Origin: Silurus meridionalis | Taxonomy: Eukaryota > Chordata > Actinopteri > Siluriformes > Siluridae | NCBI RefSeq assembly: GCF_014805685.1 | Contig: NC_060890.1 | Location: 21,470,500 to 21,534,499 of the forward strand | Reading direction: 5' to 3' | DNA length: 64,000 nucleotides | In this document: positions 1 to 64,000 of the stretch, one piece after another | Layout: every line of letters starts with the position of its first letter | Position numbering within the stretch: the first letter of the stretch is position 1 | Position numbers and translations under genes: made by a program | Notes under the pieces: model-generated | The model's input: the letters and a program-made list of their open reading frames with translations, nothing else | Databases searched by the model: none | What the model was told of the DNA's origin: nothing

Positions 1-64000
<64,000 letters not shown>

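What the first reader, a model, noticed from the sequence alone, without database searches (positions are those of the whole stretch)
45601..45618. RyR2 gene keeps an ASII-type 18-nt microexon
Seen: a strong 3' splice site, 18 nt, then a GT donor, phase 1-1, in the intron between the exons ending EEGS and starting GEKV. Inclusion gives [12 protein letters not shown]. Known: RyR1 has the alternatively spliced VINRQN (ASII) at the same place, and RyR3 a similar insert. Human RyR2 usually has none. Inference: this fish gene retains an ancestral, probably regulated microexon. Its product lies about 22 residues before the Ca2+-site Glu of LLCEGHN, so it could tune Ca2+ sensitivity.
Basis: partly seen in the sequence, partly recalled or inferred. 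Interest (0 to 1): 0.85.

Follow-up and report, generated by a model that had tools for sequence, protein, structure and literature searches.

The report
Conserved RyR2 counterpart of ASII microexon
A catfish calcium-release channel gene (RyR2) carries a tiny 18-letter optional exon that adds six amino acids near the channel's calcium sensor; the same six residues appear in gene models from a shark to a macaque, so it is a real and ancient exon rather than a fish oddity, though its effect is untested.

Summary
Window 45601-45618 is an 18-nt, phase 1-1 exon between RyR2 exons 40932-41005 and 49059-49139; inclusion gives [12 protein letters not shown]. In this window alone it is only suggestive: 18-nt candidates as good arise in about 5% of shuffled introns. 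Comparison settles it. VITHER sits at this junction in RyR2 models from catfishes, gar, eel, coelacanth, a shark, crocodile, lizards, birds and a macaque. Eleven pairs of models from five related fish species differ by those six residues only. In the same genome two ryr3 genes and one ryr1 gene have an 18-nt xxxxER|G candidate in the homologous intron. So it most likely predates the RyR1/2/3 split and is the RyR2 counterpart of ASII. The window gene is the conserved ryr2 copy; a divergent second copy has a 110-nt intron without it. Calling it a fish retention is too narrow, since a macaque has it too. Regulation, tissue and effect on Ca2+ sensitivity remain inference. Automatic gene models already contain it; my paper searches found no description.

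The parts
40932..41005 (+). RyR2 exon before the microexon, ...[19 protein letters not shown], ends in phase 1
   Evidence: spliced alignment
45541..45600 (+). pyrimidine-rich 3' splice site of the microexon; 4 TCTT in the 100 nt upstream (45501-45600) against 0.58 per 100 nt over the intron
45601..45618 (+). 18-nt microexon, VITHER, phase 1-1
45619..45624 (+). 5' splice site gtaatt; gtaaat in the ryr1 and both ryr3 counterparts
49059..49139 (+). RyR2 exon after the microexon, [27 protein letters not shown]
49124..49126 (+). codon of the Glu equivalent to RyR1 E3893, a Ca2+-activation-site ligand
   Evidence: position from the RyR1 alignments; role from PMC8332584 passages

Best explanation
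The 18 nt are a genuine cassette microexon of the conserved ryr2 gene (ryr2a-type) of a siluriform catfish. It descends from a microexon in the single RyR gene that preceded RyR1, RyR2 and RyR3, and is the RyR2 counterpart of RyR1 ASII (exon 83). Shown here: position, phase, conservation, counterparts in paralogs, and gene models of related fishes with and without it. Inferred: splicing factors that read the pyrimidine/UCUU-rich tract (PTBP1 or RBM20 type) hold it partly skipped; where included, six residues lengthen the segment leading to the Glu that binds activating Ca2+ and shift channel sensitivity. Because zebrafish ryr2a is neuronal and ryr2b cardiac, and the ryr2b-like copy here has a 110-nt intron without it, the included form probably serves neurons or other non-cardiac cells.
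For: Exact junctions. The 120 listed of 2173 hits all carry an insert at the site: 116 VITHER, 2 VMTHER, 1 VLTHER, 1 VINHER, from shark to birds; 2 Macaca fascicularis models have VITHER. Eleven exact minimal pairs: 4 in Hemibagrus wyckioides, 3 in Pangasianodon hypophthalmus, 2 in Tachysurus fulvidraco, 1 each in Lates calcarifer and Anguilla anguilla. In the same genome two ryr3 genes have INVRER and TNVSER and one ryr1 gene NMKLER, all 18 nt, same phase, last base G then gtaaat; an open 18-nt xxxxER candidate occurs in 0, 0.2, 0.8 and 6.8% of 500 shuffles of the C8 ryr3, C23 ryr3, ryr1 and ryr2 introns. RyR1 VINRQN at the same residue. Paralog assignment. Zebrafish expression: PMC6906632 passage.
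Against: No RNA was examined, so use in this species is not shown. Gene models may be propagated between species by annotation pipelines. The PDB RyR2 sequences and most listed mammal models lack it. One ryr3 counterpart (C8) has a poor acceptor by my matrix (-4.1), and the ER criterion was chosen after seeing the candidates. Motif counts are weak evidence for any splicing factor. The Ca2+ effect rests on nearness alone. The ryr2a/ryr2b assignment rests on conservation and one exon tree whose RyR2 fork has 85/92 and whose bootstrap had not settled.
Confidence: 0.9

Rival explanations
1. A chance AG..18 nt..GT pair in a long intron, not an exon.
For: 32 open 18-nt AG..GT pairs exist in this intron, 5% of shuffled introns give one scoring as well, and one pair scores slightly higher under loose cut-offs.
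Against: The six residues and the junction recur exactly in RyR2 models across jawed vertebrates and paralogous introns hold the same kind of candidate exon.
Confidence: 0.01
2. A real exon, but constitutive in this fish rather than alternative.
For: Its splice sites fall within the range of the gene's other exons and many fish models include it.
Against: Models without it exist in three catfish genera beside otherwise identical models with it; Bagarius yarrelli, Tachysurus vachellii and a Clarias gariepinus record without it are also listed.
Confidence: 0.07
3. A real alternative exon with no functional weight at the protein level, kept by chance or by RNA-level constraint.
For: Most listed mammal models omit it and the RyR2 channels solved so far lack it.
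Against: VITHER is nearly invariant from shark to macaque, whereas the ryr1 and ryr3 versions differ from it in the first four residues.
Confidence: 0.15

Closest known systems
RyR1 ASII (exon 83, residues 3865-3870, VINRQN)
   Same: Same junction, same length, six residues before GEKV, alternative (for related fishes; PMC3899969 and PMC3852932 passages)
   Different: Paralogous gene; different residues (first V and I shared with mammalian RyR1); developmental regulation is documented for RyR1 only
RyR3 six-residue insert at the same site
   Same: 18-nt candidate exon in both ryr3 genes of this genome, INVRER and TNVSER, sharing the final ER
   Different: Paralogous gene; the PDB RyR3 sequence 9c1e lacks the insert. 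The human form LIVRER is recalled, not from a call
RyR2 24-bp exon regulated by RBM20
   Same: Small alternative exon of RyR2 (PMC13365226 and PMC7230170 passages)
   Different: Other length and other intron. VTGSQRSK stands between KSFE and EKEM in 41 of 308 fetched models, 59 not matched by the pattern; that this is the published 24-bp exon is recalled. No such exon was found in the window's intron 38337-38706
Eleven-residue alternative at the same RyR2 junction (ASHFESHRLRT or ASHFESHRLQT)
   Same: Same junction, in 11 of 308 fetched models, from monkeys and a camel
   Different: 33 nt, unrelated sequence

Membership tests
ASII-type RyR microexon | 18 nt, phase 1-1 | tested here: met
ASII-type RyR microexon | Lies between the residues that end EDGT/EEGS and start GEKV | tested here: met
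   the five printed RyR1 alignments show VINRQN at the same columns
ASII-type RyR microexon | Common descent with the RyR1/RyR3 exon | tested here: met
   same-phase 18-nt candidate ending ER-G in one ryr1 and two ryr3 genes of the same genome; absent in the ryr2b-like copy; the sixth gene could not be read
ASII-type RyR microexon | Alternatively included | tested here: inconclusive
   11 minimal pairs of models in five related species; no RNA, and nothing for this species
ASII-type RyR microexon | Developmental switch in muscle | not testable with these tools
   no RNA data
RyR2 | Gene groups with RyR2 rather than RyR1 or RyR3 | tested here: met
RBM20-regulated 24-bp RyR2 exon | 24 nt, in another intron (80-81 in human numbering) | tested here: not met
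   18 nt and a different junction; intron number from PMC13365226 passage
SRRM4-type neuronal microexon | UGC just upstream of the 3' splice site (recalled) | tested here: not met
   0 TGC in the 100 nt upstream

The most novel reading that the evidence does not exclude
RyR2 has carried, since before jawed vertebrates diversified, a second splice form with a nearly fixed six-residue insert beside its Ca2+-activation site; it is a non-cardiac, probably neuronal, gating switch absent from the RyR2 structures solved so far, and it was lost from the cardiac teleost copy.
Probability: 0.35. Interest if true: 0.75.

Novelty: new member of a known kind. Interest (0 to 1): 0.55.

Why it matters
RyR2 is the main cardiac calcium-release channel and a leading arrhythmia gene, yet the solved structures are of the form without this insert. 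A six-residue cassette kept almost unchanged from shark to macaque, 22 residues before a Ca2+ ligand, would be a ready-made way for cells to change the release threshold, and it makes the role of ASII testable across three paralogs.

Tried and rejected
Considered and rejected: that it is the known RBM20-controlled 24-bp RyR2 exon (other length and junction); that it is a chance splice pair. Led nowhere: a scan for the 24-nt exon in 38337-38706 found none; splicing-motif counts gave only a pyrimidine/UCUU excess; one RyR1 gene of the same genome could not be tested because the stretches fetched upstream are largely N. I first took one locus for ryr1; comparison put it with RyR2 as a divergent copy. 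In one search only the second of its two exon pairs was measured; the first was mispaired by the script. Two extractions used a wrong pattern and returned nothing usable; redone. The spliced model had 6 stops and was replaced. Insect papers also use the label ASII (listings); I did not compare their site.

Full report
What is there. The window lies in one RyR2 gene of a fish genome of 742.6 Mb. Among the proteins its spliced protein is closest to RyR2 of the catfishes Hemibagrus and Pangasianodon (97%) and Tachysurus (96%), then other fishes at about 90-91% (20 best rows shown), so I infer a siluriform catfish. The exons on either side of the finding end at 41005 and start at 49059; between them 45601-45618 is framed by cag and gta and keeps phase 1 on both sides. 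Inclusion gives [14 protein letters not shown].

Is it more than chance in this window alone? Only modestly. My splice scores place its acceptor above 45 of 68 and its donor above 27 of 68 in the gene model; 6 of that model's 69 exons I judged spurious. Under one cut-off it is the best of 3 short open candidates in the intron, and 18-nt candidates as good number 0.05 per intron over 300 shuffles. Under looser cut-offs another 18-nt pair, with a poor donor, scores slightly higher (7.0 against 6.5), and the intron has 32 open 18-nt AG..GT pairs.

Comparison settles the matter. A search with the included form found 2173 proteins; the 120 listed all carry an insert here, 116 VITHER, 2 VMTHER, 1 VLTHER and 1 VINHER. 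They include several catfishes, gar, pike, trout, eel, cichlid, stickleback, coelacanth, bamboo shark, crocodile, lizards and birds. The ranking favours included forms by design, so this shows breadth, not frequency. A mammal-like query listed 120 of 2443; of its 70 new proteins 10 have VITHER (2 of them Macaca fascicularis, 8 birds), 11 have an unrelated 11-residue insert at the same junction, and 49 have none; among the 61 mammals that is 2, 11 and 48. A query without the insert listed 120 of 2408; of its 118 new proteins 116 have none and 2 did not fit my pattern. Over the 308 proteins fetched: 126 VITHER, 4 one-residue variants, 11 with the 11-residue alternative, 165 without, 2 unmatched. 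Clustering at 90% hides many members, so absence in a species is not shown. Eleven pairs of models are identical apart from the six residues, in Hemibagrus wyckioides (4), Pangasianodon hypophthalmus (3), Tachysurus fulvidraco (2), Lates calcarifer (1) and Anguilla anguilla (1).

Paralogs. Six RyR loci were found in the genome. In the homologous introns, ryr3 has TCAACGTGAGGGAGCGGG (INVRER) at C8:6975039-6975056 and CCAACGTGAGTGAGCGGG (TNVSER) at C23:15773420-15773437, and ryr1 has ATATGAAGCTAGAACGGG (NMKLER) at C13:25933701-25933718, minus strands, each followed by gtaaat; the window has TCATCACCCATGAGCGTG then gtaatt. By my matrix their acceptors score -4.1, 2.1 and 7.7, so the first is poor. 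In 500 shuffles of each intron an open 18-nt candidate ending ER occurs in 0, 0.2, 0.8 and (window) 6.8%; the ER criterion was chosen after seeing the candidates. The divergent ryr2 has a 110-nt intron there in the exon pair I measured, without a candidate. The remaining ryr1 could not be read. RyR1 in the PDB has VINRQN at the same place; the 12 distinct sequences labelled RyR2 are six residues shorter there by their aligned ranges; RyR3 9c1e lacks it.

Meaning. A microexon of this size and phase in RyR1, RyR2 and RyR3 is most simply inherited from their common ancestor. In RyR1 the exon is ASII, exon 83, residues 3865-3870, excluded in immature and included in mature muscle, with about 10% of adult RyR1 lacking it (PMC3852932 and PMC3899969 passages; also PMC5840707 passages). 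The Glu 23 residues after the insert is equivalent to RyR1 E3893, a Ca2+-activation ligand (position; PMC8332584 passages). Zebrafish ryr2a is expressed in spinal neurons and ryr2b in cardiomyocytes (PMC6906632 passage), and zebrafish ryr2b is the less conserved copy, 63% against 86% to human, the latter from a partial sequence (PMC3262159 passage); the window gene resembles the conserved copy. A non-cardiac role is therefore my leading guess, not a result.

In print. Full-text searches for ryanodine receptor with ASII, RYR2 with microexon, VINRQN, RyR2/ryr2a with splice variant and zebrafish, RyR2 with 24-bp/30-bp insertions, Ryr2 with Rbm20 and 24 bp, VITHER, RyR3 with ASII, and ryanodine receptor with microexons gave no description of this RyR2 exon in what I saw. 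I saw listings, and passages of ten of the papers (among others); most subscription journals are not held. It is present in automatic gene models, so it is new to what I could search of the literature rather than to databases.

Noticed in passing
window 44738-45145: Minisatellite of 12.8 copies of a 32-bp unit, ending about 450 nt upstream of the microexon.
   Followed up: no
L017 (own genome, C8 plus): The divergent ryr2 copy has the exon pair around the ASII site twice, about 1.27 kb apart, with the same predicted residues; a local duplication or an assembly artefact.
   Followed up: partly
P0125-P0132, P0138, P0176, P0177: Monkey and camel RyR2 models carry an 11-residue alternative (ASHFESHRLRT or ASHFESHRLQT) at the same junction.
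   Followed up: partly
window 38337-38706: The intron homologous to the site of VTGSQRSK, seen in 41 of 308 fetched RyR2 models, showed no such exon in this catfish.
   Followed up: yes
window 18439-18639 and 41947-42162: Two stop-to-stop stretches share [12 protein letters not shown] and [12 protein letters not shown], probably remnants of a non-LTR retrotransposon (recalled).
   Followed up: no
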